Shown here: piece by piece, positions 18,657 to 62,668 of the stretch | Layout of the letters: every line of letters starts with the position of its first letter | How positions within the stretch are numbered: position 1 is the first letter of the stretch | NCBI GenBank assembly: GCA_963662175.1 | Contig: OY759214.1 | Span: 77,016,037 to 77,080,036, forward strand | Reading direction: 5' to 3' | Length of the DNA: 64,000 nucleotides | Origin: Aradus depressus | Lineage: Eukaryota > Arthropoda > Insecta > Hemiptera > Aradidae | Translations under genes and position numbers: made by a program | Notes under the pieces: model-generated | Database searches by the model: none | Told to the model about the DNA's origin: nothing | What the model saw: the letters and a program-made list of their open reading frames with translations, nothing else

Positions 18657-18727
18657 AGTGAGAAGTGATTATTCCACAGGTTGTAAAATAACATATAGTC
18701 TTACCTCTCACATATTTTATTAATGTT

Positions 18728-18765
18728 TGCTAGCCGGCTTTTAAAGTTGCCCTCATCATCAGGCA
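18728..18765 (-). ncRNA. Hammerhead-like motif, family A left arm (decayed)
   Basis: On the reverse strand: TGC, CTGATGA, T, GAGG-GCAA-CTTT, AAA (GAA expected), AGCCGGCT, A, GCA. Stem I (TGC/GCA) and the palindromic stem III remain. Stem II's 3' side and the GAA have lost bases, so probably inactive. Confidence 0.5.
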
Positions 18766-19052
18766 GTCTGATAAAATGATTTTTTAAATAACATAATTTA
18801 GAATGTTTTAATAAATAGATTTTCATAAAAATAGAAATAAACGCACATGAAAAATAATTTAAAATTTCATGGGACATATATGTTAATTCTGTCCCCAACC
18901 TGGTTGTGACTCAGATGGGGGACAGGATTAACATATCCGCCCCCATCCATGAAATTTTAAATTGTTTTTATATGGGTTCATTTCTATTTTTACGAAAATC
19001 TATTTATTAAAACATTCTAAATTATGTTATTTTAAAAATCATTTCTTCAGAC

Positions 19053-19088
19053 TGCCGATGATGAGGGCAACCTCGAAAGCTGGCTAGT
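19053..19088 (+). ncRNA. Hammerhead-like motif, family A right arm (decayed)
   Basis: TGC, CGATGA (one base short of CTGATGA), T, GAGG-GCAA-CCTC, GAA, AGCTGGCT, A. Stem II with a GNRA-type GCAA loop is perfect here; the CTGATGA box is broken. Confidence 0.5.
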
Positions 19089-19215
19089 AAATATTAATAA
19101 GATCTGTGAGAAGTGAATCTATATCGTATTTTACAACCTGTGAAATAATAAGTTCTCACTAGATCATTCATCTTCTTATTAATAGATTACTGTGTTTCTG
19201 CATCAGTATCGGCGC

Positions 19216-19816
19216 ACCTGAACACAAATAATTACAATGGAAATTTGTTAACTCGATTTTGGATTTTTTTTTATTTATAAGAAGATAATTATTAATCTAT
19301 AGTCACAAATGGTAATTGGTTTATTGTTCTAACCTGTTTGCAACCGACGTTGTGGAATTCACGGTCGACACCAGGATACACCGATCTTTCTTATACCACG
19401 CATTGTATTTACTCAATTTTGAACAATAGAATATATTTCTTCCCCCCCCCCCTCTGCCAACAAAACAAATCCAACTTTTAAGAAATATGAGGTCGTGTTT
19501 TATTGTTTTGGTTCTTGTTGGTTTAATCCTCGAACACCTGGTTCTCCTATACTTCATTCGGGGCAATATAAGACTCCCTCTCCGTCCTAGGACGTGGTCA
19601 GGGTGTCACATATGTTGTGTTCTGTCTTAGGACAACCACACACACTCAAACACAATTACAGATATAGCAGACAACAACAATGTTGTTTGTCTCAAGTACT
19701 AGCAGGTTCATCCGGTGTTGTCCGGGCGTAAGTTTAGATGTTCACTTTTCTGTATATTCAGTTTATAAAATAGCAATGGAGATTATAGCATATACGAAAA
19801 TTTATTCCGCCGGTAA
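19216..19816. other. Mostly unassigned region
   Basis: Less repetitive than its surroundings. On the reverse strand, 19420-19330 contains 'WYKKDRCILVSTVNS', weakly like a piggyBac transposase segment; too short to call. A C-run lies at 19442-19451. Confidence 0.35.
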
Positions 19817-19863
19817 ACGAAAAACCCGACCAAGGCCCTTAGTTTATTTTATCTGGGAGGTAT
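19817..19863 (+). mobile_element. SINE-A fragment
   Basis: Carries only 'acccgaccaaggcccttagt' and 'tttatctgggaggta'. Confidence 0.6.
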
Positions 19864-20089
19864 TTTTACAGGAACTAAAGTCTTAGAAATAACATGATTA
19901 TCTGTTGCTAAATTTGTATTTTTTAGTCTTGCTTGAAGCATGGTTATCAATAATCATCTATTTGATTTGTGTAAATCTTCTAAAAACTATTCTCGATTAT
20001 GTTATCTTCAAAAGGCTAGAGCTAATAGTAAATAATTAATTTAAATAACAGTTAACTTCATGTCTAACTCGAGATCTACTGTCATTTGT

Positions 20090-20300
20090 ATTTTTAATTT
20101 TTATTTTTTAATGTATTTATTTATTGATTTTTCTCACGCAATTTTTAAGGGAGTGCTGGTGCTGACCGGATTCTCCCCTCATGCCTTTCAGTCCTTTTGA
20201 CGCCCCCCCCCCCCCCCCCCGCCACCTGGTCTTCCTCCACTGCTGGACGGATGGTTGGGCCGAGTGGTGGGAAGGTCAGTGCGGTCTCCCCTTCCCCCTC
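20090..20300. repeat. Dispersed repeat related to 8041-8370, with poly(C)
   Basis: 'gtgctggtgctgaccgga' and 'ctcccctcatg' are the reverse of the block at 8275. An 18-base C run lies at about 20203-20220. GC-rich flank. Confidence 0.45.
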
Positions 20301-20306
20301 TCCACT

Positions 20307-20483
20307 AGGTCAGTGGTATGCGTGCTTGACTTCTGAGCTCAAGTTCGTGGGTTCGTAACCCAACCGAGGCCCTTAGTAGAGTCGGGCTCATGTCCACCAG
20401 AGTGACGAAAGAGTACTCTGGTAGCAGGCGATATGACCTCGTAGTTAAAAGCCCGGGCATGAGTCATAAAACCTAACCTAACC
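20307..20483 (+). mobile_element. SINE-A with internal deletion
   Basis: The head ('ggtcagtggtatgcgtgctt') passes straight from 'gaggcccttag' to 'tagagtcgggctcatgtcca', skipping about 165 bp of body. It ends in 'aaacctaacctaacc'. Confidence 0.85.
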
Positions 20484-21589: not shown

Positions 21590-23040
21590 GTAGAAATTTA
21601 TTTCTTGGATGGTAGGCGGATGTAGTGGACTTACTTCCTAAATAAGTAATACAGAGGTATCAGTCCAACAATATATTTTATTTATACCACAACTAGTTTT
21701 GATAATCAACCTATTTTCTTGGTTGATAGGCGGATGTGGACTTACTTCCTAAATAAGTAATACAGAGGTATCAGTTCAACAATATATTTTATTTATACCA
21801 CAACTAGTTTTGATAATCAACCTATTTTCTTGGTTGATAGGCGGATGTGGACTTACTTCCTAAATAAGTAATACAGAGGTATCAGTTCAACAATATATTT
21901 TATTTATACCACAACTAGTTTTGATAATCAACCTATTTTCTTGGTTGATAGGCGGATGTGGACTTACTTCCTAAATAAGTAATACAGAGGTATCAGTCCA
22001 ACAATATATTTTATTTATACCACAACTAGTTTTGATAATCAACCTATTTTCTTGGTTGGTCGGCGGATATAGTGGACATACTTCTTAAATAAGTAATACA
22101 GAGGTATCAGTTCAACAATATATTTTATTTATACCACAACTAGTTTTGATAATCAACCTATTTTCTTGGTTGATAGGCGGATGTGGACTTACTTCCTAAA
22201 TAAGTAATACAGAGGTATCAGTCCAACAATATATTTTATTTATACCACAACTAGTTTTGATAATCAACCTATTTTCTTGGTTGATAGGCGGATGTGGACT
22301 TACTTCCTAAATAAGTAATACAGAGGTATCAGTCCAACAATATATTTTATTTATACCACAACTAGTTTTGATAATCAACCTATTTTCTTGGTTGGTCGGC
22401 GGATGTGGACTTTTTTCCTAAATAAGTAATACAGAGGTATCAGTCCAACAATATATTTTATTTATACCACAACTAGTTTTGATAATCAACCTATTTTCTT
22501 GGTTGATAGGCGGATGTGGACTTACTTCCTAAATAAGTAATACAGAGGTATCAGTCCAACAATATATTTTATTTATACCACAACTAGTTTTGATAATCAA
22601 CCTATTTTCTTGGTTGGTCGGCGGATATAGTGGACATACTTCTTAAATAAGTAATACAGAGGTATCAGTTCAACAATATATTTTATTTATACCACAACTA
22701 GTTTTGATAATCAACCTATTTTCTTGGTTGATAGGCGGATGTGGACTTACTTCCTAAATAAGTAATACAGAGGTATCAGTCCAACAATATATTTTATTTA
22801 TACCACAACTAGTTTTGATAATCAACCTATTTTCTTGGTTGATAGGCGGATGTGGACTTACTTCCTAAATAAGTAATACAGAGGTATCAGTCCAACAATA
22901 TATTTTATTTATACCACAACTAGTTTTGATAATCAACCTATTTTCTTGGTTGGTCGGCGGATATAGTGGACATACTTCTTAAATAAGTAATACGGAAGTA
23001 TCAGTTAAATATATTTTATTTAAACGACAACTAGTCCCGA
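21590..23040. repeat. Satellite-like array, 13 monomers of 111-114 bp
   Basis: 'gcggat' starts a monomer at 21617, 21730, 21841, 21952, 22063, 22177, 22288, 22399, 22510, 22621, 22735, 22846 and 22957. Monomers are nearly identical. Those at 22063, 22621 and 22957 share a variant ('cggatatagtggacatactt', 3 bp longer), and 22399 has its own variant, so the array grew partly by multi-monomer duplication. On the reverse strand each monomer is the family C arm plus tail (compare 44358-44544). It contains 'ACTAGTT' but has lost stem II of the hammerhead motif. Confidence 0.9.

Positions 23041-24646: not shown

Positions 24647-24649
<3 letters not shown>
23446..24649. other. Unassigned AT-rich region
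   Basis: Begins with a probable remnant of family C ('caggtagtgaatcttaaca'). No gene recognised; short open frames (23520, 24087) have no familiar motif. Confidence 0.4.
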
Positions 24650-24708: not shown

Positions 24709-24712
<4 letters not shown>

Positions 24713-25859: not shown

Positions 25860-25883
25860 ATACATTCATTTATAATTGATTAA

Positions 25884-28235: not shown

Positions 28236-28264
28236 GGCACGCATACCGCTGAGCAAGGCAATAG

Positions 28265-28596
28265 GGCGCCTGTAGCTCAGAGGTTTGCGTGTTTACCTTC
28301 TGAGCTCAAGAACGTGGGTATGAAACCCGGTCGAGGCCCTTAGTTTATTTTATCTGGGAGGTAAAATAAACATAAGCACGCCGTCCTTCGGATGGGACGT
28401 TAAGCGATTGTCCCGAGCCTGTACGATGTCAGTTACTCGTTAAAGACCCCTAGGTGAATAAAAATTTAGGATAGGCAATATTTAGGACTCCCATAGTAGA
28501 GTCGGGCTCATGCCCACCAGAGTGACGAAAGAGCCTCTAGTAATAGGCGATATGACCTCGTAGTTAAAGCCCGGAATGAGTCATAATAACTAACTA
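28265..28596 (+). mobile_element. SINE-A, near full length
   Basis: The head 'gcctgtagctcagaggtttg' has an intact A box, and the B box is 'gggtatgaaaccc'. The body is complete except for small deletions near 28443 and 28530. Tail 'ataactaactaaaacc'. Confidence 0.85.
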
Positions 28597-29668: not shown

Positions 29669-29762
29669 TGAAATTAAAATTAAGAATAGAGGACAAAAAA
29701 ATAAAGATAATTGTAGGAATATTGAGGGTCAGTCAAAGATGGGAAAAAAACACTATTCAGAT

Positions 29763-29799
29763 GCCAACGTTTCGATATATTTTATATCATCATCAGGGC
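29763..29799 (-). ncRNA. Hammerhead-like ribozyme motif, family B left arm
   Basis: Reverse strand: stem I GCC/GGC, CTGATGA, extra T, stem II GATAT/ATATC, GAA, palindromic stem III ACGT, H base T. Every core position of a type I hammerhead is present apart from the extra T before stem II. Predicted cleavage would follow the T at 29766 (complement). Confidence 0.65.
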
Positions 29800-30276
29800 C
29801 TACAAACATGGGGGGGAAATCAAGATTAGAATCAAAAATAAACAAAAAAAAAAAAAATTTTTTGTTGATAAACATTACTGAACGTTAAAAATATACTATA
29901 ACAAGTTAAAAATTGAAACTGACTTACTATGAATAATTACTAAACATTAAAATTAAATATGAATACATTACTAAAAATAATCATTAATAATGGAAATAGA
30001 CAAATAGGTGGAACATAATAAAGAGTAAACATTAAAATGACTTACTATGAATAAGCAGGGTTGGGGAGAAGACATTGCAATGTAAGACTCCATCCAGTGT
30101 ACATGTCTTCTCCCCAACCCTGCTTATTCATAGTAAGTCATTTTAATATTTACTCTTTATTATGTTCCACCTATTTGTCTATTTCCATTATTAATGTTTA
30201 TGTTTAGTAATGCAATCATATTTAATTTTAATGTTTAGTAATTATTCATAGTAAATCAGTTTCAATTTTTAACTTT

Positions 30277-30627
30277 TTAGGTTAGGTTAGGTTTTATGAC
30301 TCATGCCCGGGCTTTAACTACGAGGTCATATCGCCTACTACCAGAGCGCTCTTTCGTCACTCTGGTGGACATGAGCCCGACTCTACTGTGGGAGTCCTAA
30401 ATTTTGTCTACCCTAAATTTTTATTCATCTAGGGTAGGGGTCTTTAACGAGTACCTGACATCGTACAGGCTCGGGACCATCGCTTAACGTCCCATCCGAA
30501 GGACGGCGTGCTTAAGTTTATTTTACTTCCCAGATAAAATAAACTAAGGGCCTCGGTCGGGCTACGAACCCACGACCTTGAGCTCAGAAGTCAAGCACGC
30601 ATACCACTGAGCTACCGGCGCCCTCTT
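30277..30627 (-). mobile_element. SINE-A, full length, nested
   Basis: Reverse copy from the 'ggttaggttaggttttatga' tail to 'gagctaccggcgccctc' at the head. The B box in reverse reads 'gggctacgaaccc'. It interrupts the right arm of fold-back B, so it is younger than that element. Confidence 0.9.
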
Positions 30628-30727
30628 AACTTGTGTATTTTTAACGTTCAGTAATGTTTATCAACAAAAATTTTTTTTTTTTTTGTTTATTTTTGATTCT
30701 AATCTTGATTTCCCCCCATGTTTGTAG

Positions 30728-30764
30728 GCCCTGATGATGAAATAAAATATATCGAAACGTTGGC
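30728..30764 (+). ncRNA. Hammerhead-like ribozyme motif, family B right arm
   Basis: GCC, CTGATGA, T, stem II region 30739-30753, GAA, ACGT, T, GGC. One stem II base differs from the left arm; the core is intact. Confidence 0.65.
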
Positions 30765-30860
30765 ATCTGAATAGTGTTTTTTTTTCCATCTTTGACTGAC
30801 CCTCAATATTCCTACAATTAGAATCTACAGTCGCTAATCAACATCTACAATAAAGATAAT

Positions 30861-33869: not shown

Positions 33870-34192
33870 CAATAAATTTATTTCCGTTAAACCAATACAT
33901 GGTAATAGGATACTTCAAAAGAATTTATACATTAAGATGATTAGATTTATAACGACTTGAGTAACAAAATTAATACATATATACATTTTTTAAGTAGACA
34001 CATTTTTCAATTTAATAAAAATTAAGATAACTATTTTTCAAAAACTCTTCGGAAGTGTCTATATCCGAACGATGTTTCGGGACGTGAGAACGTCCCTTTA
34101 TCAGGTCCCAATGTGCGGGATATAGAAAAGGAAAAGAATACAATGTAACTATAACAGTATATACATATGTAAATATAAATATATATATATAT
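33870..34192 (-). mobile_element. Family I repeat (reverse)
   Basis: Mirror of 25860-26337: starts 'aaatttatttccgttaaacc', holds the hammerhead-like core near 34078-34106 and runs into a TA stretch. That stretch was the target of LTR element 2. Confidence 0.65.
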
Positions 34193-35474
34193 ATTGTAGC
34201 ATGTCTACCCTATAGATAATGCTCAGAACTGGCGATGTCTATGAGAGGATCGCGATCGCTAGGAGCAAAGTATGGGTTGTGTGGTGTTGAATAAACGAGA
34301 ATTGCATTTGGAAGAGAATGCTCGGAACCAATGATGCCTGCGAGAGAATCGCGATCGCTGGGAGCGAAAATAAAGAATAATAGAGACACAATGGAAAGGA
34401 AGCCAAGATAATTGTCTTTTTTTTTTTTTTTTTTTTTTTTTTATTTAATGCCTTTAGATAATTACAAATAACAGATAAATATTACAGGATAAATAGGCTA
34501 CCTCCTATGTACATCCGGTGTATAAGGAATAAGCAGTAAAGGTTTTTTTTCTTACTCCAGGTTTTCACACAACTAGAGGCAGATGTTAATTGGTAATATG
34601 CGATTGGCTGGAAATAAAATGGGCGGAGTCCGACGACCAATCAAGCCTGGAGAACTGTCCCCTACCACGGTCAGATATCGGAAGCCACTCCCCGTTTTAC
34701 TCATTCTTCGCTCATGTCTTGGCTGGTCACCACGTTCTTTTTATATTGTACAGTTGAGTTTAAATATGTGAATTGAGTTTTCTTCGTTCATGTCTTGGGT
34801 GATCACCACGTATCTTTTCTATAAGTAATATCAGTTAGAATATGTGAAATTAACATTCTTTGCTCATGTCTTGGTGGATCACCACGTATCTTTTCTATAA
34901 GTAATATCAGTTTGAATATGTGAATTAGTCGTAGAGACACACCTTGATTTTGGACGGTGCAAAGTCAGTGGGGGTGTAACTTCTGGTGTGCCCTCGAAAC
35001 TACGCAGATCTTCAGGGACTATGTGAATAGACGATTTCTACGGGAAGTCCAGAAAGGGTGATCACGCCGTCATTCGCCATGGATATCGTATCGAGGTACC
35101 TCGTAATTAAGTTATAATACAGTCCTTCAGACACACGGCCAAATTATATATATATTCAATTGTTGTTTTGTAAATATGTTCTCATTGAAATAAATATGTT
35201 AAAGTTATAGGTTTGATTCATTTCATTCCCCCCCACTCATGCTTCTTCTGGTTGACAACAGTAATTAATTATTGTTAATTACTGATGTCAACTAACCGTT
35301 AGGATCTTGTAACCGTTCTTCCCGTGGGAGTGCTTTCAGCTATTCAGGCATTGTTTAATTAAAGTCGCGATTTAAATAATTTTCAATTTTAATAATTTTT
35401 CGATCTCAATTTTATTTATTTTATTAATTACGTGATTTGCACTCACACAGGGAGGAATAATGAATGGTTATAAT
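34193..35474 (+). repeat. 5' LTR of element 2
   Basis: Matches the 3' LTR almost base for base except for about 92 extra bases at 34418-34509. The LTR holds three diverged repeats of a 'gctcatgtcttgg.tgatcaccacgt' phrase (34711, 34789, 34862). Confidence 0.9.
34418..34509 (-). mobile_element. Poly(T)-headed insertion inside the 5' LTR
   Basis: Begins with about 25 T's and 'atttaatgcctttagataat'. It is absent from the 3' LTR, where 'attgtc' joins 'tacatccgg' directly. It looks like a short 5'-truncated retro-insertion on the reverse strand that postdates the LTR element. Confidence 0.75.
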
Positions 35475-35579: not shown

Positions 35580-35920
35580 AAAAAAAAAAAAAAAAAAAAA
35601 TTTTTTTTTTTTGCTTTTTAACGTAGATTCCAGCCTATTAGGCCACAATGTTATATTTTCACTTAAAGTCGGTATTTAGAATCAAAACTGAAGAAGGATG
35701 GGTGAGGGTAGGGACAATGAATGACATCATTTATTGAAATAATTTTATTTTTTTTGTTTTTGATTTTTTTTTCCTTATGTAGATTTAGTAGGCATTTATT
35801 TTACATATTATAACTATTGTTGTATTGTAATGCCATCTGACAGGTCACCATAGAAATTAGGTTAGCACCAGACCTCCCGTATAATTCATTTAATTGTTTT
35901 GATATATATTTCTTATCAGA
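35580..35920 (+). other. Leader of LTR element 2
   Basis: Begins with an A20/T12 palindromic homopolymer pair (35579-35612), then AT-rich leader to the ORF. No gene. Confidence 0.5.
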
Positions 35921-36769
35921 ATGGAAGGGAAAGGGAAGTCGGACTTAGAGCCGATACAGACACGGTCTAGGAAAACTATTCGCACTCCCCCGGAGTCCCC
36001 GGTAGAAAATCCTAAATTTGACCTAGAGGCGATGTTTAAGGCCATGCAGGAACAGATAGGACAGCAGGGAAAGGCCATGCAGGAACAGATGGGAAACTTG
36101 GGAAATTCCCTAGGACAGCAGACTTCGGAGATAAAGGAACAAATTTCGGCAATGGCAAATAATATCGAATCCATTAAACGTAATATGGGTACCGTACAAT
36201 CTGAATCTAGGCAGGACAATTCAGAAGAGAGATATGATAAGCCTACTTCTAAAGTTAGGGACATGGTAGGTGTCAGTTATCATGAAGTTACAGGTGGGAT
36301 CGTGTCAGAAACACAGCATCTAGATAAGGAGGTCGAAGAAATAAATTCGGACCAAAATATTATTAGTACCGATTGTGAGAAGAGATTCGCCGATATCTCG
36401 AAGAGAATAGATACTGTTTCGGGTCAAACTCAGATCTCAACCCCAAAACAAGATGACCGAATGACATTTACCGTACCCGAAGGACATAGGAATTGGCCTA
36501 CGAACCAGACTTTTGCTCGCGAACAGCCTAGCAATGTCACCTTCCAAGATGTCTACGTGAAAAATTACGAACGTGGTGAGGTGGCGTTACGTAATAGCGT
36601 TTTGGATTTGCCCAACCATTTTGTATTTAAATTCTTACTATTCTGGGAAGGACCTTACCAGATTTTAGACAAGGAAAGTCCTCAAATTTTTATTTTAGGA
36701 CACCTCGGCAGTAACGATGTGAGAGGGACATTCAATATTACCTCTTTAAAGCCGTATATTAGCGGATAA
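35921..36769 (+). CDS. gag-like / integrase C-terminus fusion ORF
   Basis: ATG at 35921, 282 codons, stop at 36767-36769. The N-terminal two thirds look like an insect Ty3-type gag start: basic and proline-rich 'TRSRKTIRTPPESP', then an 'AMQEQ' repeat and coiled coil (residues 45-95). From about residue 205 the text changes to the tail of a pol integrase: 'YERGEVALRN', 'FKFLLFWEGPYQIL', and a closing 'GTFNITSLKPYI'. In intact elements these parts are separated by protease, RT, RNase H and most of the integrase. The frame is preserved across the deletion. It may be translated, but no enzyme is left: no D-D-E residues or RT motif are present. Whether it packages RNA in trans is unknown. Confidence 0.75.
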   Translation: MEGKGKSDLEPIQTRSRKTIRTPPESPVENPKFDLEAMFKAMQEQIGQQGKAMQEQMGNLGNSLGQQTSEIKEQISAMANNIESIKRNMGTVQSESRQDNSEERYDKPTSKVRDMVGVSYHEVTGGIVSETQHLDKEVEEINSDQNIISTDCEKRFADISKRIDTVSGQTQISTPKQDDRMTFTVPEGHRNWPTNQTFAREQPSNVTFQDVYVKNYERGEVALRNSVLDLPNHFVFKFLLFWEGPYQILDKESPQIFILGHLGSNDVRGTFNITSLKPYISG

Positions 36770-38117
36770 ATTTACAAGCAGGCTAGAGAAGCGCTAGGGC
36801 TCTCTTTGAGATTAACGATCTTACTTCAGCCGAGTTAGGGGGGCGATTATTGCAGACGAGATCGCGGCCCTAGAGTCAGGGAAGAGATTTGTGACGTCTC
36901 TATGGGTGTCCATCCCCAGCTATCCCAGGAACAGTTAGACAAAGTCACACACACATAAAACAGACACTATTCTTTATTATTTGGGAATTATTTATTATTT
37001 TACACTAACGGCCAACACCTCATTATACAACAACACACAAAGAATCACACATACACATTTATTGGGGACACGGGATTTATTATTTAATTTTTTTTTTTGT
37101 AAATAGAATAAGGCAGACGGGGACATTCTGGCACTCCCCTGGGGCTTAACATCGAGCATACCCCCCTTAGTCGAGCTCAAAGATTCCAAAGTGAATCGCC
37201 AGGTTGTAAATAGTAATTTTAGATAATAAGTTAGGGTTAGTTTTTTTTAAATTCTAGATATTAAGTTAGGATAATTTTTTGTTTATATTTGGCATAGGAT
37301 ATTTTTTTATTAGTATTACGTTTTTTTTTTGATGTTGGGATAATTTAGTTTAGATAGGTTTGTGGCTTCATTTTAATTTAACGTAATTATAGGACGGGGC
37401 AGACGGCATATGGACTGGCCATCCATAGGAATTTACCTACGTATTTAAATTTGATTAGGAGACGCGGATCTGAGCCACTCCATTGATGCTTGTAGAATCC
37501 ATTTAAAGGGGCGGGAGTTGTTTAATTATTTTTTATGCCATGAACTGACTGTTGAACTGAAGAAAGGGTTTCGCTACTTGATTAATGCGGATGCCGGAAT
37601 TTACATATATTTATGAAACTGAGATGGGATTTGAGTGGGCTTATTTTTCTATTTTATATTTCGTCGTCGTTCCGGCAGAAGGTAAATACCTGTCGAAGGC
37701 CTAAGGAGGCATATGGTTAGGGTTTGGTCAACCCAAATTTTTGTTGAAGCGGATTAGGTATATGGGAATTCAGTTGAAACATTGTCGAGGCGTGGGATCT
37801 TTTTGGATGTTTTAACTAGTCAGTGAATGTATGCTAGAAATAGAATCATCGTTATTTGCCAATGGAGAGGGTTAACTCCAAGAAGTACAGCGTAAAGTAA
37901 AATCATGCTTTGGTCACGCATGCATAGGCAAGCCATGCCGATTCGAAAGGAAATTTAAAATCATGTTTTGGTCACGCATGATAATGAGGTCGATACCTGA
38001 GTATTTGGTTAAGTGTATATGCTCAGTGAACGAGCAAGTGTTAAGTGAAACTAATAAAATATGTGACTTCCAATGGTCATTTAGCCGACATATTTTATTT
38101 TAACGGGAACGGGGGAT
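36770..38117 (+). other. 3' noncoding interior of LTR element 2
   Basis: No ORF with recognised motif. Around 37905-37985 the phrase 'aaatcatg.tttggtcacgca' occurs twice. The purine tract lies at 38103-38117. Confidence 0.55.
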
Positions 38118-39861: not shown

Positions 39862-40510
39862 TATTTTCAAATTATTGAAGGTATTATATCAAATAATATT
39901 AAAAGCCTTTTTAGTCTCAAAATATTTCATATTTTCTTTCATTTTTATTTTCACCAATTGTAGAACAATATTTCGTCCATTACAGACATTATCAAGTTCA
40001 CATATATCTGAAAATTATATTATGATACAATTACTTAACTGTTCATCCTTTCTTTATTATTCTCATTACAATCAATACTGGTTAATAACTAATTTTATAT
40101 ATACTATTATAATTAGATACATTAATATCTCCTTACCTTACATAGGTATATGTAATCATTGTTATAAAAATAAATCTACTTTAGTTAGTAAAGTTTTCCT
40201 AGAACAATTAGATCAATGCATCTTCATACTCACTAACAACCATAATCACCAAAACATATATTATTATATATTATTATTTTAATATAATTCAATTATTACC
40301 AAAAAATTGAGGACCCCATTCCTACTTCACCACGCTCTTGGGTAACCTAATATGAAGGTAATCAAATCATCGATATCAAAAAGATAAAAAAAAAATAATT
40401 TCAATTATTATTATTTTTTTTTTTTTAAATGTCTCCCAAACATTGTTAATTAAGGGACTAAAAAGGCTTTTAATATTATTTTATATAATACCTTCAATAA
40501 ATGGTTGAAG
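39862..40510. mobile_element. Fold-back element, family G-hh
   Basis: Left arm 39871-39914 ('gaaggtattatatc', 'aaaagcctttttagt') is the reverse complement of 40457-40501. The interior is very AT-rich and holds a hammerhead-like motif. A 135-codon open frame at 39875 starts inside the arm and looks fortuitous. Confidence 0.6.
39963..39999 (-). ncRNA. Hammerhead-like motif, family G-hh
   Basis: Reverse strand: stem I GAAC/GUUC (4 bp), TTGATAA (CTGANGA with two transitions), T, stem II GTC/GAC, GAA, palindrome ATAT, H base T. Confidence 0.5.
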
Positions 40511-44345: not shown

Positions 44346-44556
44346 ATTTTAGTTTGAATAAGTAATTAGATGTGTCAGTCCAACAATTTTTTGTTTAAAC
44401 CACAACTAGTTTCGGCAATTTGCCATCTTCAGGTGGTGAAACTGAACATACATACACCAAAAATAAAAAAAATTGTTGGACTGATACATCTAATTACTTA
44501 TTTAACAAGTTAATCCACTAAATCTGCCTACCACCAAGAAATATATTTTAGTTTGA
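44346..44556. mobile_element. Family C element, complete, 12-bp target duplication
   Basis: ATTTTAGTTTGA at 44346-44357 and 44545-44556. Inverted arms run 44358-44393 and 44467-44501 ('taagtaattagatg' / 'catctaattactta'). A 43-bp tail (44502-44544) lies only on the right. The only other content is one hammerhead-like motif and a 30-bp spacer. At 187 bp it is the smallest complete member of this class here. Confidence 0.9.
44399..44437 (-). ncRNA. Hammerhead ribozyme-like motif, family C (best copy)
   Basis: Reverse strand: stem I ACCAC/GTGGT (5 bp), CTGAAGA, extra T, stem II GGC/GCC with loop AAATT, GAA, palindrome ACTAGT as stem III, H base T. All conserved core positions fit CTGANGA...GAA A...U H. 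The one departure from the textbook form is the extra base between A9 and stem II, a variation known in some natural hammerheads. The stem III loop has zero length, so catalysis would probably need two motifs pairing as a dimer. Confidence 0.7.
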
Positions 44557-46782: not shown

Positions 46783-47106
46783 TAGGTTAGGTTGGGTTTT
46801 CTGACTCATGCCCGGGGTTTAACTACGAGGTCATATCGCTTACTACCAGAGCGCTCTTTCGTCACTCTGGTGGACATGAGCCCGACTCTACTGTGGGAGT
46901 CCTCAATTTTACCTACCCTAAATTTTTATTCACCTAGGGCAGGGGTCTTTAACGAGTACCTGAGTACAGGCTCGGGACTATCGCTTAACGTCCCATCCGA
47001 AGGACGGCGTGCTTAAATTTATTTTACCTCTCAGATAAAATAAACTAAGGACCAAGGTCGGGTTTCGAATCCACGATCTTGAGTTCAGAAGGCAAGCACG
47101 CATATA
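46783..47106 (-). mobile_element. SINE-A, near full length
   Basis: From 'ggttaggttgggttttctga' to 'caagcacgcatata', lacking the first bases of the head. Confidence 0.85.
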
Positions 47107-48504
47107 AGATGTATTGGGTGTTAATAACAAGTTGACTCAAAAACTACTGAATTGATTTTGATGGAAAAGTTCACTTAGTTAGAAATGCCACCTTTGTAGT
47201 CTTAAAATACGGCTCAGTAATTTCCTCTGATTTAGGGTGCAAAGAGGCGAAACACACACAGCCTGCTTGTATTTTTCTACAATCTGTACAAAATTTACAA
47301 TAGGTAGAAGTGAACATGAAATAAAAATGTACAATTGATGGGAGAAGCCAGCTAGTGCTGACACTCCCTTAGACAGTCTCGTTATTTATTCAAAGAAGAT
47401 CGCGAGGCCAGCGTCATCTTAGGCGGCGTGGAGGGTTGTCGGGATGGGACTGAAAATGAAATGACTTGAAATGGAATTTCTGGAAGCGGAGTTGAATTAG
47501 GTCTTGGACATAGGCGACTCAAACAAAGGCTGTACCAGGACTTAGTATTTAAACCCTTTATTTTATTATATATTTGTGTATAGCATCTTGTATCTTGCTG
47601 GTCCAAATAAATGTTGTTGTCCGGGAATCGTGTTCACAAACACACAAACATTCTTTTTTAATTTTTTTTTTGGAATTTGTAGGTCGGAATATATAAAATT
47701 CTGCTGAAAACTCAGCATCGAATTTCTAACCGATTACATAACTTCTCATATACTTTGGCAAAGTAAAAGACTGTCTATAATCCATTCGAGGACAAATTGA
47801 CACCGTTCTCAGAGTGTTATTATTGAGGAGAGCTAGAATTGATTAGGAAGCTCATGGAACAGAGCCCCAGTTAAATTTTCATCTGGTCCCCTGAAAAGAG
47901 GCTGCAGTACAAATTCCTTCGTTTCAAGGTAACTGACAGAAACCATTTTCACTTGGCTCCCTCCCCTTTGCCTCTCTGATAAATTATTCACTTTTTCATT
48001 TAAAACACTTACATTTCTACTTTCCTGTTCAACACAGTAAATCCTACACTTTTCATACAAATTCTCTTATTTCGTTTTTCCCATTTTTTTTTTCTTTTGT
48101 AAAATGAACAACTAATAAACATAAATAATGAGTAACTGATCAAAAATTGAAAATCCGTATGTATTGACTTGACAACCCTCTCCAGTCATTTCTCAAGCAG
48201 CCATTACAAGACATTTCACTCGTTACAACTTAAAACGTATTTTAGAAAAAAATTTCAAATCAATAAATGCCGTTAGTTACTTTATAGATTGATTTGCCCT
48301 GAATAGAATGACATCTTGTACGTTCACGTATGTTCAATAGAATCGTCGGCATCGTTTGCAAACGACTAAACAATGGGAAAGATTGAATTCCTGGAACCGG
48401 GCTGTGCGGAATTTAGTCCCACGATCAATCAATCAATATTCAATTTATATCGAACAAAGGAAGTAGAAATATATTATTTTAAATAATTAATTAATTAAAT
48501 AATA
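47107..48504. other. Mostly unassigned region
   Basis: 47695-47770 is a reverse repeat H hairpin end. Elsewhere no gene is recognised; open frames near 47382 and 47833 show no known motif. Confidence 0.4.
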
Positions 48505-48780: not shown

Positions 48781-48807
48781 TTATACATTTTTCCTTTTTT
48801 TTTTTAT

Positions 48808-49148
48808 AGGTTAGGTTAGGTTTTATGGCTCATGCCCGGGCTTTTAACTACGAGGTCATATCGCCTACTACCAGACAGCTATTTCGTCACTCTGGTGGAC
48901 ATAAGCCCGACTCTACTGTGGGAGTTCTAAATTTTTATTCACCTAGGGCAGGGGTCTTTAACGAATACCTGACATCGAACAGGCTCGGGACCATCGCTTA
49001 ACGTCCCATCCGAAGGACGGCGTGGTTAAGTTTATTTTACTTCCCAGATAATATACTATGGGTCTCGGTGGGTTTCGAACCCACGTTCTTGAGCTCAGAA
49101 GCCAAGCACGCATACCACTGAGCTACCGGCGCGCCGCGGCGCCCTCTC
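48808..49148 (-). mobile_element. SINE-A, near full length
   Basis: Tail 'ggttaggttaggttttatgg' to head 'gagctaccggcgcgccgcgg'; lacks about 15 bp in the 'agagcgctc' part. Confidence 0.85.
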
Positions 49149-49179: not shown

Positions 49180-50620
49180 CAATAAATTTTTTTTTTTTTA
49201 ATTCGCTGCAATGCGTTACAGTTTAAAAATTACTTTAAAATATTTCCTACAGAAATATATTTCACATTTCTTAAAGCACTACAACTTTGGTCGGAAATTT
49301 TATAAGAAACGTTTTGATGAGTCAATTTTTTTTTTCGATAGGTTAAACTGTTTTTCGCGAAAGTCGAGAAAAAGTCCTAAAATGTCGTTCTGATACTTTT
49401 TTTTAAACTAAGTACATTTTACAAGACACTACTTACATTTATGACATGGCCACAACTCTCTTCAAATAAAAATTGTAGAGAAAATTTAACGACAAATTTT
49501 ATATGGAATACGATTTTTTGAAAGTTGCCCAGTTTACGAAATTAATGCGGAAAACCATCCTATAATATCATTCTGGAGCCTATTTTTTTGGATGGTTTTC
49601 CGCATTAATTTCGTAAACTGGGCAACTTTCAAAAAATCATATTTCATATAAAATGTATCGTACGATTTTCTCTAAAATTTTTATCTAAAAAGAATTCTGA
49701 TCAAATCATAAATATATGTAGTATCTTGTAAAATGTACTTAGGTTCTGAAATAAGTGGTCTCAATTTTCGATCTACTTTAGCGCATGTGCACACAGACAG
49801 ACATCATAGCGAAAACGCTGAAGGCATATTCAGAAGATCTTGGAACGTGAAAAACCAAAAAAAAAACACAGGAAAGGAAGTAAGAATAGTTCACTTAGAA
49901 AATTGAATTGTAACTGGAATCAATATGAAAGATAAAAAAAAAAAAAAACGAGAAAGAGGAGGCTAAATTTTTTTCTTATATGTCTCTGGCCAATGCTATT
50001 GGTAGTATTGGAGTACCTTATGAAAATGAAATTGGTAAAGTAAAACCTGTTGCAGTATTTTGCTGGGGGGAGATCGAATGAAATTGGACCAATAAAGAAA
50101 TTTAATAAAGTCAATTTGTAAAATGAAAAATGACAGACATTGCTCGTATAGATCCCATGTTTGGTTTAATAAGTAACATTTTTTAATGAATTATAAAAAA
50201 ATTTAAGCATCGGTCTTCTGATAGGACGAATCGTCTTCGCGTAAATCATGCGAAGGTCTAAAAAAAATGGGTTTCGAGATGTCGTTTTAGGACTATTTTC
50301 AAATAAAATGTCGGTTCAGTCATAAATAAGCGTTATCTTGTAAAACGTACTTAGCGCTTGAAGTATAGTAGTCTCAATTTTCGTATGATTTCGGTCAAAA
50401 TCTATTCAGGCGTAAGTTACCACCTGTGACGTCCTCATCTCAAATTTCACGTTCATTGCTACAATCGTTTAAGGGCGCTCCAAAGTGCAACATACAATCA
50501 TCACGAAAATGATCAAAATGTTCAAGGTACATAGTAAAATTCCATTAAAAACTCGATCTCGAATTTTTTCACAATTTCAATATTTTCTTATAATAAAGGA
50601 GAACTGCTGACCTCTATCGA
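49180..50620. repeat. Repeat F copies
   Basis: Two or more units with 'gcgaaagtcgagaaaaagtc' and 'ttcgataggttaaactg'. An inverted repeat at about 49490-49665 has arms of about 70 bp ('ttgaaagttgcccagtttac' and its reverse). 49920-50120 is an unrelated spacer. Confidence 0.5.
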
Positions 50621-52685: not shown

Positions 52686-52721
52686 GCCTGACGATGAGGG
52701 CAATCTCGAAAGCTGGCTAGC
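52686..52721 (+). ncRNA. Hammerhead-like motif, family A solo copy
   Basis: GC, CTGACGA, T, GAGG-GCAA-TCTC, GAA, AGCTGGCT, A, GC. Core intact; stem II pairs with one G-U; stem I only 2 bp. It lies in a partial family A arm that continues to about 52800. Confidence 0.55.
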
Positions 52722-52969: not shown

Positions 52970-53152
52970 ATCCCCAGCTATATGACGTATAAGAGAAGTT
53001 ATGTAATCGGTCAAAAATTCCATGCAAAGTTTTCAACATAACAACTTCTAAGTTGAGGAACGCGGACATATTGTGGAATTTGTAATAAATAAATAAAACA
53101 AGCTTATTTTTTGAAATGTTGTCTATTCCACTAAAGATATCTATAAAAATAC

Positions 53153-53187
53153 AACTACCGGTTTCGGCTTCACACCATCGTCAGGTC
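53153..53187 (-). ncRNA. Hammerhead-like motif, family D left arm
   Basis: Reverse strand: GAC, CTGACGA, T, GG...CC, GAA, palindrome ACCGGT, A, GTT. Core intact; stem I has a G-U pair and stem II only two firm pairs. Confidence 0.55.
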
Positions 53188-53644
53188 TAGTTATGAACTA
53201 AGTTAGTTTGCAGAGTGTGACCCCTCCAATACCTCTCTGGTGAAAGGTGCCACTTCAATTAGGGAATCCCCCGGCTTAACCGTTAGCTACATCATGAAAT
53301 ATTTGACAGAACACTAATTTTTCTTAATTTACATAAAATAACATCTTGCCCCTTTGCTATAACCCTGAACTAGTTCTATTTCCACATATACCTATGTTTG
53401 TTATTATCTGTTATTATTATAGGTTTCCATATATATGTTATTATCTGTTATGTTTTTTAGTTTTATTTTTTACTTATTAGTCAAAAGATGTTATTTTATG
53501 TAAATTAAGAAAAATTAGTGTTTTGTCAAATATTTCATAATGTAGCTAACGGTTAAGCCGGGGGATTCCCTAATTGAAGTGGCACCTTTCACCAGAGAGG
53601 TATTGGAGGGGTCGCACTCTGCAAACTAACTTAGTTCATAACTA

Positions 53645-53679
53645 GACCTGACGATGGTGTGAAGCCGAAACCGGTAGTT
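53645..53679 (+). ncRNA. Hammerhead-like motif, family D right arm
   Basis: Same sequence as the left arm on the opposite strand, so transcripts from either strand would carry it. Confidence 0.55.
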
Positions 53680-54082
53680 GTATTTTTATAAATATCTTTA
53701 GTGGAATAGACAACATTTCAAAAAATAAGCTTGTTTTATTTATTTTTCAACATAATTTCATGTTTTCCAACCTCCTCTTTGTATTGGTAGGAAATCCGAA
53801 CCCCCCTAACGACAACATCTATCAATTTTCGACCCAATCGTCCAAAGAATAGAATGAAAGTATCAACACAAAATTTCATGAATTCAAAACATTGACAGCA
53901 CATTGATTTTCAGCGGAGGGAAGAAGGGATCAGAGACGGGGCTCTATTCACAAACTCCAATAACTGCCAATGTAATGAATTTAACGGAGCCCATATGTAA
54001 GTCAACTATTGAATATTAGCGCAAAGTCAATGGTTCATTTTAATTGAATATTAGCGCAATACGTATTATTTACCTGTGGTCG

Positions 54083-55197: not shown

Positions 55198-55514
55198 ATA
55201 TTACATATTTAAGTATTGAACTGATTCCAGGTCTACTTTGTGAAAATTCATAATGAACAGGAAAAAGGAATATACACACACTAAGGAATATAAACTCCAC
55301 ACACTACTTGTCAATATTTTCACTATATTGGTCAAAATTACACGACTATAGTTTCGCCTGTTACGGCATCATCTCTGTTTAGTTCACTTGATGATGCCGA
55401 AACAGGCAAAACTATAGTCGTGAAATTTTGACATATATACTGAAAATATTGACAAGTAGTGTGTGGAGTTTATATTCCTTAGTGTGTGTATATTCCTTTA
55501 TCCTGTATATTACA
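55198..55514. mobile_element. Fold-back element, family E
   Basis: Arms 55256-55379 and 55385-55506 are near-perfect and the centre is only a few bases. ATATTACA at 55198-55205 and 55507-55514 is a likely (partly decayed) target duplication. A tail of about 50 bp lies on the left only. Confidence 0.75.
55383..55424 (+). ncRNA. Hammerhead-like motif, family E
   Basis: Stem I TTCAC/GTGAA (5 bp), TTGATGA (first C changed to T), T, stem II GCC/GGC, AAA (GAA in the left arm), palindrome ACTATAGT, C. The left arm (about 55336-55375, reverse) keeps GAA. Together the two arms give an almost complete consensus. Confidence 0.55.
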
Positions 55515-56725: not shown

Positions 56726-57194
56726 GAAAAAAGAAAACTCACTGACGAATTTTTTTTTTTCAAGATTGGCCATCTGGCCAATGTGGGTCACATTCTATAG
56801 AAATTAGCAAAAATAAAAAAACTTAATAAAAAAACAATTTATTTAAAATAATGAAAAAATATAAATCAAAAAAAACGTTTTGTAAGGTAAGAAATATATA
56901 TTAAAAAATTAATTGTACTCAAATTAATGATAAGGATTAAATGTAAGCCAAAATGACAAAATGGCATGGTGTTAGTTATAGGTAATTGTATGTTATTGTT
57001 TTTCAGAAAATTTTAATGAATTTGAAAATGTTTATTAAAAAGACGAAATATTGTTCGAAAAATGAAAAATAAAGAATGAAAATTAATTGAGACTAAATGG
57101 CTTGATGGTTTATTCGTGAATAATACCCTAAAATAAGATGAAACAATGTCTCTAAAATAGGAAATAATTTTGTGATCTTTAACATAAAAAAATA
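56726..57194. other. Unassigned AT-rich spacer
   Basis: No gene seen. Confidence 0.4.
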
Positions 57195-57402
57195 AAATAC
57201 TACTAATCATAAACACTTAAAACAAGTCAAAAAATTTCACTATATTTATATAAAATACACAATATATTTCGCTGGTTAGAGCATTGTCAAGTGTACAGGA
57301 TACAGATAATGCTCTAACCAGCGAAATATATTGTGTATTTTATATAAATATAGTGGAATTGTTTGGCTTGTTCTAAGAGTTTTTATTCAGTAGTATTTAC
57401 AA
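57195..57402. mobile_element. Fold-back element, family F-hh
   Basis: Arms 57195-57289 and 57309-57402, near-perfect towards the centre ('aatatatttcgctggttaga' and its reverse) and diverged at the outer ends. Confidence 0.75.
57255..57296 (-). ncRNA. Hammerhead-like motif, family F-hh
   Basis: Reverse strand: stem I GTACAC/GTGTAT (6 bp), TTGACAA (two transitions from CTGANGA), T, stem II GCT/AGC with loop CTAACC, GAA, palindrome ATATAT, T. The architecture is complete but the first box has decayed. Confidence 0.5.
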
Positions 57403-60035: not shown

Positions 60036-60385
60036 ACTAACAAAAGTTTCATTACAGAAAATAAGTAAAATTCCTGTTAGACTAGAGAAAAAGTAAGTTG
60101 AGAAACACGGACATATTGACGAAACTTATAATAAATAAATAACTTGTCAGGAAAAAATTGTTAGTCGCAGGTCATTCCGTTTTCGGGATGCATGGCATTT
60201 TGAAGCTATTTTGACTTGATTTACCCGAAAACAGTAGGCCCTATCGGAAAATTGGTTCTCACAAGAAATGTTCCTTATTAAATTTCCAACCGATTTAAAG
60301 TCCTCAGATTTGAGATAAGGTTTATACGACCAAAGTTATAGCGCCTCATAGAATGTAAAATAAATTTCCGTATGAAACATGTCAA
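60036..60385. repeat. Family D tail fragment, then repeat F fragment
   Basis: 60097-60145 ('aagttgagaaacacggacat') matches the family D tail at 53052. 60150-60370 is repeat F ('gaaatgttccttattaaatt'). Confidence 0.55.
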
Positions 60386-60733
60386 AGGTTAAGTTTTATG
60401 ACTCATGCCCAGGCTTTAACTACGAGATCAAATCGCCTACTACCAGAGCGATCTTGTGTCACTCTGGTGGACATGAGCCCGACTCTACTGTGGGAGTCCT
60501 AAATTTTGCCTACCCCAAAATGTTTATTAACCTAGGGCCTACCCCTAGGTCTTTAACGAGTACCTGACATCGTACAGGCTCTGGACCATCGCTTAACGTC
60601 CCATCCAAAGGACGGCGTACTTAAGTTTATTTTACCTCCCACATAAAATGAACTAAGGACCTCGGTCGGGTTTCGAACCCACGATCTTGAGTTCAGAAGA
60701 CAAGCACGCATACCACTGAGCTACCGGCGCTAT
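60386..60733 (-). mobile_element. SINE-A, full length
   Basis: From 'aggttaagttttatgactca' to head 'ctgagctaccggcgct'. B box in reverse 'gggtttcgaaccc'. Confidence 0.9.
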
Positions 60734-60812
60734 CAGGAAAAATGTCAAAATAATGTTAAAATTGTATCGCATAGCAACGAATTATAAAATATATTTTTAT
60801 TATTCGTAGTAG

Positions 60813-61075
60813 AGGGAGCCGGTAGCTCAGTGGTATGCATGCTTGCTTACTTGGCTCAAGATCGCAGGGTCGAAACTCCTAGTTTATTTTGTCTGAGGGG
60901 TAAGAAAAACTTAAGCATGTCGTTCTTCGGATGGGACGTTAAGCGATGATCCAGAGCCTGTATATACACAATTTAGGACTCCCATAGTAGACTCGGGCTC
61001 ATGTCCAACAGAGTGACGAAAGAGCGCTCTGGTAGTAAGCGTTATGAACTTGTAGTTAAAGCCCGGGCATCTGTC
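60813..61075 (+). mobile_element. SINE-A, internally deleted
   Basis: Head 'gccggtagctcagtggtatg', B box 'gggtcgaaact'; body skips from 'cagagcctgta' to 'tttaggactcccatagtaga'. Lies about 80 bp from the opposite-strand copy at 60386, giving an inverted pair. Confidence 0.85.
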
Positions 61076-61330
61076 CTTGGTGGGTATAAGAAAGCCACTC
61101 TCAGAATTTCACTGTACAATGTAATGTCAGTATGAAAATTTTGAGAAGGGGGAGAGAGAGTGATCTGTAAGTATGCTTGGTATAAGAAAGTCCTGTATTG
61201 GTCACATACATTTTCACTTCCCCATTTACACGAAGTATAAGGGAAGTTATGTAATCGGTAATTTATTTTCAAAAAGTAAATAAACTGAGAGTGGGGAGTT
61301 TCAATGCTGCGGCGGGTAAAGTAACCGAAC
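61076..61330. repeat. Repeat G copy and repeat H hairpin end
   Basis: 61085-61205 is a repeat G arm pair. 61212-61250 is the hairpin ('acttccccatttacacgaag'). Confidence 0.5.
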
Positions 61331-61468
61331 AAAGAAACAAAGAGTTTCATTGAAACTTTGTTACGAATAAAACATGATCTTTTTGAAAGTTATATTATTT
61401 GAAACTCAGGTTTATTGGATGAAAAATATGCATTTCAGTTCTCCATTAAATTGATTTTTTTTTTTTTT

Positions 61469-61558
61469 AACCCGGGCTTAAACTATGAGGTTATATCGCC
61501 CACTACCAGAGCTCATATCACTCTGGTGGACATGAGCCGAACTCTACAGTGGGAACCT
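61469..61558 (-). mobile_element. SINE-A fragment
   Basis: 'cccgggcttaaactatgagg' to 'gccgaactctacagtggg'. Confidence 0.65.
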
Positions 61559-62264
61559 GAGATGTAATACAAAATTTACTACTCACTAAGAAGTATTCAA
61601 AAGTCACTAATTGTAAGTCTAATATTAATTTTTAGAACAAATGGTTTCTGGAAAGAGAGCGAAAATTTAATTGATTAATTCGTCCTGGGGAGGGGGGGTG
61701 GGGGGGGGGGGGGGGTACATTACCGACGTCGTTTTTAGTTTCCAATCTCGGAGAGGAACAGGAAAAAGATCTTTCACCGAATAACGTTTACTCAAAGGAG
61801 CTCATTCTCAGATTGTTTCCAGTCAAAACACATAGCACGTTTTGGATAGAGTCCATAACCCATTAAGATTTCCTGTTTGCGTATACAGTTTCATGTCTAC
61901 AGGAGAACATAAAGTTCAAAACGGATGTGTTATAATAATTCACATTTAATGTGTGTGGATTTTGAAAGGCAACAATGGCGTGAGGTATTAACAACAAACT
62001 TGGGGTTGGATTTGGTCCAATACAAGCGTTGGCACGTAATTAGAAATAGTTTTGACAGTTGTGACTTGTTGACAGGGTTTGGTGTGAGCCAAGCCAAAAG
62101 ACAACAAAAATCCAAATCATTCAAAAACTTTTTTCCAGGAAAAAGGTACAGGATAAGAGAAATTCCCTTTTGAAAGGGAAAGCGACTGGAAAGCCATTGA
62201 GTACAAAAAGGTCTCATCAGCGACTCTCTTTACATTTTTGAGAAATTAGCGTTAAAATTTAACA
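61559..62264. other. Mostly unassigned region
   Basis: 61660-61730 holds the repeat H outer end broken by a G run (61688-61714). 61730-62260 is less repetitive with no recognised coding motif. Confidence 0.4.
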
Positions 62265-62335
62265 TTTTTATTACTTTCCCAGTTTAACGAAGTATAGGGA
62301 AAGTTATGTAATCAGTCAAAAACTCGAAAAAACAA
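62265..62335 (+). repeat. Repeat H hairpin end
   Basis: 'actttcccagtttaacgaag' to 'tatgtaatcagtcaaaaac'. Confidence 0.6.
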
Positions 62336-62362
62336 ATTCTGTGACTTTAATACGAAGATGGC

Positions 62363-62668
62363 TGATGTAGTGAGAAGTGATTATTTCAAAGGTTGTAAAA
62401 TAAACTAAAGTCTAATCTGTCACAGATTTTATTAATTCTTGCTAGCCGGCTTTCGAGGTTGCTCTCATCATCAGGCAGTATACAAAAAAAAATCATTTAG
62501 CAACAAAGAAACAGGGGGATAGGTTTGTCCAGTCTCATGTACTCCGATCTCCCAGTTGTGACTCAGATGGGGAACAGGAATAACATATCTGTCCCCATCC
62601 AGCCGGCTAGCAAAAATTAATAAAATCTATGAAAGGTGAGACTATATTTTATTTTACAACCTGTAAAA
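62363..62668. mobile_element. Fold-back element, family A, short copy
   Basis: Starts 'gtagtgagaagtgattattt' as at 18655 and ends in the reversed 'ttttacaacctgt'. The right arm lacks the hammerhead-like core: 'catccagccggctag' joins directly. Confidence 0.75.
62440..62477 (-). ncRNA. Hammerhead-like motif, family A (best copy of the family)
   Basis: Reverse strand: TGC, CTGATGA, T, GAGA-GCAA-CCTC (one A.C mismatch), GAA, palindrome AGCCGGCT, A, GCA. All core bases intact and stem I pairs over 3 bp. Confidence 0.6.

What the first reader, a model, noticed from the sequence alone, without database searches (positions are those of the whole stretch)
18657..62668. A hammerhead-ribozyme-like core recurs in nine unrelated repeat families
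Different repeats share one architecture: (C/T)TGANGA, one extra T, a short hairpin of variable sequence, GAA, a palindrome that starts with A and ends with T, then one H base, with outer flanks able to pair. The palindrome differs by family: AGCCGGCT (A), ACGT (B), ACTAGT (C), ACCGGT (D), ACTATAGT (E), ATATAT (F-hh), ATAT (G-hh), AACCGGTT (H-hh); family I has AC/GT. That is the type I hammerhead layout with stem III closed to a loopless palindrome. Stems vary in sequence but keep pairing. It is established that hammerheads occur in Penelope-like elements, retrozymes and some satellites. Nine types in 64 kb, all with an extra base before stem II, is not something I can match to a described system.
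Basis: partly seen in the sequence, partly recalled or inferred. Interest (0 to 1): 0.92.

Follow-up and report, generated by a model that had tools for sequence, protein, structure and literature searches.

The report
Dimer-type hammerhead ribozymes in insect repeats
Seven different repeat families in this probably insect DNA carry a small RNA-cutting motif, the hammerhead ribozyme, in a form that seems to work only in pairs; it closely resembles ribozymes already known from Penelope-like jumping genes, so it is real and tidy but not a new kind of system.

Summary
The motif is real. A scan that fixed only TGA, A9, a hairpin, GAA, an A...T palindrome and H found 8 sites with one extra base before stem II. 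All 8 also had a stem I of at least 3 bp and a Watson-Crick 3-8 pair, neither required (60 shuffles: mean 0.72 sites, 0.03 with such a stem I). Seven families (A-G, 12 sites) hold up; H and I do not. Bases 3 and 8 switch together from C-G to U-A between families, as reported for natural hammerheads (PMC3088659). Loopless palindromes can close stem III between two molecules, as in the minimal dimeric hammerheads of Penelope-like elements. Six families lie in inverted dimers whose motifs read outward, Penelope's head-to-head layout. The extra base has company: phage contigs hold complete hammerheads with one, and it is T in 35 of 39, as in all 12 sites here. Rfam reported no hammerhead in the window or in 17 phage loci tried. 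Best reading: decayed non-autonomous Penelope-type elements with dimeric type I hammerheads; new members of a known kind. Cleavage untested, no Penelope protein found in the frames scanned, host genome unreachable.

The parts
62443..62474 (-). Family A hammerhead core, copy A1_L; palindrome AGCCGGCT; intact
18731..18762 (-). Family A core, copy A2_L; G12 lost (AAA for GAA)
19049..19093 (+). Family A, right-arm copy of element A2; degraded (reads CCGATGA), 28.7 bits with model R1
52688..52719 (+). Family A core, copy A3; imperfect palindrome AGCTGGCT
29766..29796 (-). Family B core, left arm; palindrome ACGT; intact
30731..30761 (+). Family B core, right arm; intact catalytic bases, weaker stem II
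44404..44432 (-). Family C core; palindrome ACTAGT; stem I 5 bp; intact; found by a model trained without it (36.7 bits)
53156..53184 (-). Family D core, left arm; palindrome ACCGGT; intact
53648..53676 (+). Family D core, right arm; palindrome ACCGGT; intact
55388..55419 (+). Family E core, right arm; palindrome ACTATAGT; U3-G8 and G12 lost in this copy (the left arm, 55337-55383 -, keeps GAA but lacks the YU of the core; 20.7 bits)
57261..57290 (-). Family F core; U3-A8; palindrome ATATAT; stem I 6 bp; intact (right arm 57297-57339 + is partial, 22.5 bits)
57022..57052 (+). Family G core, copy G1; U3-A8; palindrome ATAT; intact
39967..39995 (-). Family G core, copy G2; U3-A8; palindrome ATAT; intact
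18657..19231 (.). Main part of the palindromic element A2; its outer left end lies at 13438-13510, cut off by an LTR retrotransposon
62347..62694 (.). Element A1, inverted dimer; the right copy starts at A15.1 of the motif
29708..30820 (.). Element B: inverted arms 29708-29896 and 30633-30820, interrupted by a palindrome and a dispersed (SINE-like) repeat
44354..44505 (.). Element C, inverted; the right copy starts downstream of the core
53087..53745 (.). Element D: 261-nt arms, 98% complementary, 137 nt apart
55251..55512 (.). Element E: 123-nt arms around a 16-nt spacer that ends between U4 and G5 of the core
57195..57398 (.). Element F: 94-nt arms around a 16-nt spacer that ends between U4 and G5 of the core

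Best explanation
These are minimal type I hammerhead ribozymes that cleave as dimers, carried by short, non-coding, mostly decayed elements of the Penelope-like retroelement kind (pseudo-LTR derivatives). Shown by sequence: a conserved core, covarying stems I, II and III, a covarying 3-8 pair, one extra U before stem II, and inverted dimers with outward-reading motifs. Inferred: in a transcript with two copies, or between two transcripts, the palindromes pair with each other, so that A15.1 of one copy meets U16.1 of the other and closes stem III for both cores; the RNA is then cut after H17, freeing element RNA with a defined end. The inverted dimers would arise later, by self-priming of reverse transcription, as proposed for Penelope elements. 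The extra U is probably a bulge that the core tolerates.
For: Unselected features agree: 8 of 8 one-insert sites have stem I >=3 bp and a Watson-Crick 3-8 pair (C-G at 5 sites, U-A at 3; six families); shuffle means 0.72 sites and 0.03 with such a stem I. On 11 distinct rows 88.6% of cells are paired and 44 cells change on both sides, against 62.1% and 15.9 in shuffles; sliding the partner drops pairing to 24-50%. The 10.1-11.1 pair is G-C in 10 of 11 rows; its identity was not selected. A model from families B, E, F and G finds held-out C (36.7 bits), both D copies (23.2) and A3 (21.7) ahead of everything outside the seven families. A model from the window alone, run on 56 chosen viral loci, has 20 of 25 matches on hammerheads already identified there. 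The double-hammerhead fold is more stable than two single-molecule hammerhead folds in 8 of 10 sequences and is almost exactly the dimer MFE fold for E and F. At the window's own thresholds, 475 viral loci (4.15 Mb) hold 2 one-insert palindromic rows with stem I >=3 bp, one of them with a 3-8 pair, against 8 in 64 kb here. Inverted dimers with outward motifs in six families match the head-to-head layout with palindromic junctions described for Penelope (PMC3846280, passages read).
Against: No Penelope reverse transcriptase or GIY-YIG domain in the 30 of 85 stop-to-stop frames of >=75 aa that were scanned. No convincing target-site duplication at seven elements. The double-hammerhead fold beats two free monomer MFE folds in only 5 of 10 sequences (A1, A2, C, E, F); against two monomer hammerhead folds it loses for G1 and G2 and wins for B by only 0.5 kcal/mol; for most families the dimer MFE is another fold. 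The leave-out test is weak for A1 (13.0 bits, rank 15), and A2_L is not listed to E 10. A shared element downstream of the cores is at best marginal. Long inverted repeats would fold a read-through transcript back on itself and mask the ribozyme (inference). Cleavage was not tested.
Confidence: 0.65

Rival explanations
1. Fold-back DNA transposons (MITEs with long inverted repeats): the arms are terminal inverted repeats moved by a transposase, and the hammerhead rides in the arm or was captured from a retroelement.
For: Six families lie in inverted repeats with arms up to 261 nt; element A2 has matching outer ends; other palindromes without the motif exist at 49405-49745 and 29899-30279.
Against: No convincing target-site duplication; the motif reads outward in all six inverted families; inner junctions lie inside the motif in E, F and A1, which fits truncated copies better than TIRs; family G copies are not in inverted pairs.
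Confidence: 0.2
2. Metazoan retrozymes: small tandem repeats with type I hammerheads that move through circular RNAs.
For: Type I hammerheads in short non-coding repeats; amphibian retrozymes also have a weak helix III and act as dimers (PMC7229834, passages read); a 111-bp array related to family C lies at 21601-23035.
Against: No array in this window contains the motif; the C-derived array lacks the 5' half (12.5 bits or less); the inverted layout is not that described for retrozymes.
Confidence: 0.1
3. No ribozyme function: palindromic repeats that look like hammerheads because the search kept what fits.
For: The first list was made by eye; A2_L and E_R have lost G12; families H and I dissolve on inspection.
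Against: Features that were not selected (stem I, 3-8 pair, G-C at 10.1-11.1) hold in nearly all families and not in shuffles; held-out families C, D and one copy of A are found by a model trained on others.
Confidence: 0.05

Closest known systems
Minimal type I hammerheads of Penelope-like elements (Cervera and de la Pena 2014; Lunse et al. 2017; neither held; known here through passages of PMC7761336, PMC6466107, PMC6155905)
   Same: Core, reduced stem III, dimer formation, dispersed non-coding copies, link with retroelements that form inverted repeats
   Different: Whether those also carry the extra U before stem II could not be read; no Penelope coding sequence found in the frames scanned here
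Penelope pseudo-LTRs of Adineta vaga (PMC3846280, passages read)
   Same: Head-to-head inverted repeats with palindromes at the junction; solo non-coding pLTR copies
   Different: No 8-10 bp target-site duplication found here (some published copies lack one too); no ORF
Newt and axolotl satellite hammerheads (PMC7229834, passages read)
   Same: Type I, very weak helix III with a palindromic tetraloop in one group, active as dimers
   Different: Tandem 330-350 bp repeats, not inverted dispersed elements
Chrysanthemum chlorotic mottle viroid plus-strand hammerhead (PMC3705267, passage read)
   Same: One extra nucleotide in the hammerhead core
   Different: The extra base is A; that it lies between A9 and 10.1 is recalled, not read
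Phage type I hammerheads in IMG/VR contigs (e.g. L003, L010, L027)
   Same: Extra base between A9 and stem II, T in 35 of 39 complete matches with an extra base
   Different: Closed, longer stem III, so presumably active as single molecules; loopless palindromes are rare there

Membership tests
Hammerhead ribozyme, type I | Core CUGANGA ... GAA with A15.1-U16.1 and H17 | tested here: met
   Catalytic bases intact in 10 of 12 sites with U3-A8 allowed; A2_L and E_R lost G12. These features were part of the search, so they count less.
Hammerhead ribozyme, type I | 3-8 Watson-Crick pair in the core | tested here: met
   Left free in the scan: C-G or U-A in 8 of 8 one-insert sites; E_R, outside that scan, is U-G
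Hammerhead ribozyme, type I | G10.1-C11.1 closes stem II | tested here: met
   GC in 10 and GU in 1 of 11 distinct rows
Hammerhead ribozyme, type I | No extra base between A9 and 10.1 in the standard consensus | tested here: not met
   Extra T in 12 of 12; complete phage hammerheads share it, so it is taken as a variant, not as exclusion
Hammerhead ribozyme, type I | Match to Rfam hammerhead models | tested here: inconclusive
   No hammerhead match in the window; but the gathering search also reported none in 7 phage loci with insert-free three-stem hammerheads, so the negative says little
Hammerhead ribozyme, type I | Self-cleavage after H17 | not testable with these tools
   Needs transcripts
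Hammerhead ribozyme, type I | Loop-loop tertiary contacts between stems I and II | not tested
   Minimal variants are said to lack them (PMC7761336, passage)
Minimal dimeric hammerhead of Penelope-like elements | Stem III too short for a monomer, self-complementary between two copies | tested here: met
   Loopless palindromes of 4-8 nt; double fold more stable than two monomer hammerhead folds in 8 of 10 sequences, not in G1 and G2
Minimal dimeric hammerhead of Penelope-like elements | Head-to-head inverted copies | tested here: met
   Families A-F, motif reads outward in each; not seen for G
Minimal dimeric hammerhead of Penelope-like elements | Linked Penelope RT/GIY-YIG ORF | tested here: inconclusive
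   None in 30 of 85 frames scanned; the one RT found looks like R1
Minimal dimeric hammerhead of Penelope-like elements | Short target-site duplication | tested here: not met
   None convincing at seven elements; A1 has a 9-bp repeat with one mismatch. Some published Penelope copies also lack one
Metazoan retrozyme | Tandem repeats of about 170-400 nt with the hammerhead in each unit | tested here: not met
   The only related array, 21601-23035, has 111-bp units without the 5' half of the motif

The most novel reading that the evidence does not exclude
Hammerheads with one bulged U between A9 and stem II form a distinct natural subclass, shared by complete phage type I ribozymes and by dimeric insect-element ribozymes and poorly seen by current models, in which the bulge has a structural role rather than being tolerated noise.
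Probability: 0.2. Interest if true: 0.55.

Novelty: new member of a known kind. Interest (0 to 1): 0.38.

Why it matters
It shows one stretch of an animal genome with at least seven separate hammerhead families, each with its own dimer-forming palindrome, and natural C3-G8/U3-A8 switching between families. That is good material for asking how dimer-only ribozymes diversify and whether their palindromes keep families apart. The extra U, in all 12 sites here and mostly T in the phage sample, is a concrete and easily tested point about the hammerhead core. It also suggests that Rfam's hammerhead models, at gathering score, overlook likely ribozymes: none was reported in the 17 phage loci tried.

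Tried and rejected
Strict single-molecule descriptor with perfect stem I: finds only C and one probable chance match; too strict. Rfam: no hammerhead; shown uninformative by phage controls. Nearly all Rfam hits in the window at E up to 10 are microRNA models lying on long hairpins, AT repeats or poly-C/poly-G, all below their gathering scores. Shared downstream motif across families: best score above all 30 shuffled controls for width 8, below the highest control for widths 12 and 16; not claimed. Target-site duplications: none convincing. Penelope protein: none in 30 of 85 frames. Loopless palindromes in viral loci: none with stems I and II >=4 bp in 475 loci, but that test was stricter than the window scan (the window itself has 3 such sites), so it was repeated at the window's thresholds: 40 one-insert rows, 2 with stem I >=3 bp. 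Alignments A2 and A3 misplaced GAA and were not used for models; A1 and A4 were. Families H and I and the 111-bp array were examined and dropped. Primary papers on Penelope hammerheads (PMC4209133, PMC5785218) and terminons (PMC5850863) are not held.
Full report
What is there. The window looks like arthropod, probably insect, DNA: its longest ORF (9397-10644) matches RVT_1, and the named relatives in the search listing are insect proteins, several called R1-type. The host genome could not be searched (14 tries). Twelve sites in seven families hold up (coordinates); in the first 18 kb model R1 finds one match to E 1, at 11.8 bits.

More than chance. With core, hairpin, GAA and palindrome exact, five sites have exactly one inserted base and none has zero or two; 20 shuffles gave no one-insert site at that stringency. 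One search is the fairer test: it left stem I and nucleotides 3 and 8 free. Of its 18 window rows, 8 have one inserted base, 4 none, 1 two and 5 three. All 8 one-insert rows have stem I of at least 3 bp and a Watson-Crick 3-8 pair; of the other 10 rows only an alternative reading of one of the same sites has stem I >=3 bp. Sixty dinucleotide shuffles average 0.72 one-insert rows and 0.03 with stem I >=3 bp. The 8 rows stand for six families (two rows are arms of one element D, two are family G).

Covariation. On alignment A1 (12 rows, 11 distinct) 88.6% of pair cells are standard pairs, against 62.1% in column shuffles, and 44 cells differ on both sides, against 15.9 (0 of 500 shuffles reach either). 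Sliding the partner by 1-3 columns drops pairing to 24-50%. The rows were chosen partly by stems II and III, so those stems are favoured; stem I and the 3-8 pair were not selected. The 3-8 pair is C-G in seven rows, U-A in three and U-G in one. In the hammerhead these bases pair, and U3-A8 is reported in nature and active in vitro (PMC3088659, section 8 read). So families F and G, which the plain YTGANGA rule would call broken, fit a working core.

Model tests. Model R2, built from families B, E, F and G only, was run on the window. Held-out family C scored 36.7 bits (E 1.3e-5), both D copies 23.2, A3 21.7; A1 only 13.0 (rank 15), and A2_L was not listed to E 10. The other matches above A1 are training sites, the second arms of F and E, family I (14.0) and one unrelated site (13.3). 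Model R1 (all 12 sites) also picks up the second arms of A2, F and E at 28.7, 22.5 and 20.7 bits. R1 was run on 56 of the viral loci, picked by me: 35 mostly hammerhead-bearing and 21 decoys that only match the short pattern. Of 25 matches to E 1, 20 lie on hammerheads already identified, four lie elsewhere in the first group and were not checked, and one is a decoy. The loci were chosen with patterns that share the core, so this test is not fully independent.

The extra T. Viral contigs hold complete three-stem type I hammerheads with the same extra T. One search had fixed the T, so the tally uses, in which the extra base was free (a capped scan, 120 stretches): of 124 pattern matches, 39 have all three stems, and the extra base there is T in 35, G in 3 and A in 1 (same figures). 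In the 92 loci new to it is T in 15 of 19. Contigs L027, L042 and L155 carry forms with and without an extra base. Rfam at gathering score reports no hammerhead in 11 loci chosen for T-bearing candidates, at least 8 of them complete in the printed part, and none in 7 loci with insert-free forms; at E up to 10 it reports none in 4 loci. So its silence on the window means little. An extra A in a viroid hammerhead is known (PMC3705267, passage); its exact position is recalled.

Why dimers. A loopless palindrome of 4 or 6 nt leaves at most one pair in a single molecule. Two copies can pair their palindromes, which gives each core an A15.1-U16.1 and a stem III of 4-8 bp. In one search this double fold is more stable than two single-molecule hammerhead folds in 8 of 10 sequences (B by only 0.5 kcal/mol; not G1 and G2), more stable than two free monomer MFE folds in 5 of 10, and nearly the dimer MFE structure for E and F; for the others another dimer fold is better. 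At the window's thresholds 475 viral loci (4.15 Mb) give 40 one-insert palindromic rows, of which 2 have stem I >=3 bp and 1 of these a Watson-Crick 3-8 pair, so the form is rare there. Dimeric hammerheads with self-complementary stem III or loop III are described for newts and axolotl, viroids, Penelope-like elements and, as a hypothesis, Aedes aegypti (PMC6466107, PMC7229834, PMC3088659; passages and a legend read).

What carries them. Families A-F lie in inverted dimers, and in each the motif reads outward from the centre; the two G copies do not. Head-to-head inverted pseudo-LTRs with palindromes at the junction are reported for Penelope elements and were ascribed to self-priming (PMC3846280, passages read). 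In E and F, unrelated in sequence, the arms start at the same place, between U4 and G5, and the spacer is 16 nt in both. PMC7761336 (passages) states that many animal genomes hold thousands of minimal type I hammerheads, mostly dispersed, some in Penelope pseudo-LTRs. I therefore read these as decayed, non-autonomous Penelope-type elements. What is missing is a Penelope protein (none in 30 of 85 frames) and target-site duplications.

Verdict. The interpretation as hammerheads is well supported by sequence but not by experiment. It is not an unknown system: it fits the dimeric minimal hammerheads of Penelope-like elements. Interest lies in the number of families in one place, the U3-A8 families and the constant extra U, whose status in the primary Penelope papers I could not check.

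Noticed in passing
13511-18656: LTR retrotransposon with 99.4% identical LTRs of about 796 bp (13511-14306 and 17863-18656) and a 266-aa repetitive, possibly gag-like ORF at 14558-15355, inserted into the left arm of hammerhead element A2.
   Followed up: partly
34191-34417 with 38116-38342, and 34510-34809 with 38342-38641: Direct repeat blocks, 100% identical and 3.8-3.9 kb apart, on both sides of a 288-aa ORF (35903-36766): perhaps the LTRs of a second young LTR element.
   Followed up: no
21601-23035: Tandem array of 111-bp units related to the downstream part of family C; keeps ACTAGT but lacks the 5' half of the hammerhead.
   Followed up: partly
49405-49745 and 29899-30279: Long palindromes without a convincing hammerhead; the first draws microRNA-model hits below gathering score in Rfam.
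   Followed up: no
55374-55389 and 57289-57304: Elements E and F share the same inner junction (between U4 and G5 of the core) and the same 16-nt spacer length, as if the inverted copy starts at one point.
   Followed up: partly
30278-30633, 46783-47122, 48795-49135, 60380-60730, 28254-28594 and others: Abundant dispersed repeat, SINE-like; one copy holds a GGGTTTCGAACCC box.
   Followed up: no
L025, L027, L042, L154, L155, L157: Phage contigs with several type I hammerhead candidates each; L027, L042 and L155 have forms with and without an extra base in one contig. L175 also has a pistol ribozyme.
   Followed up: partly
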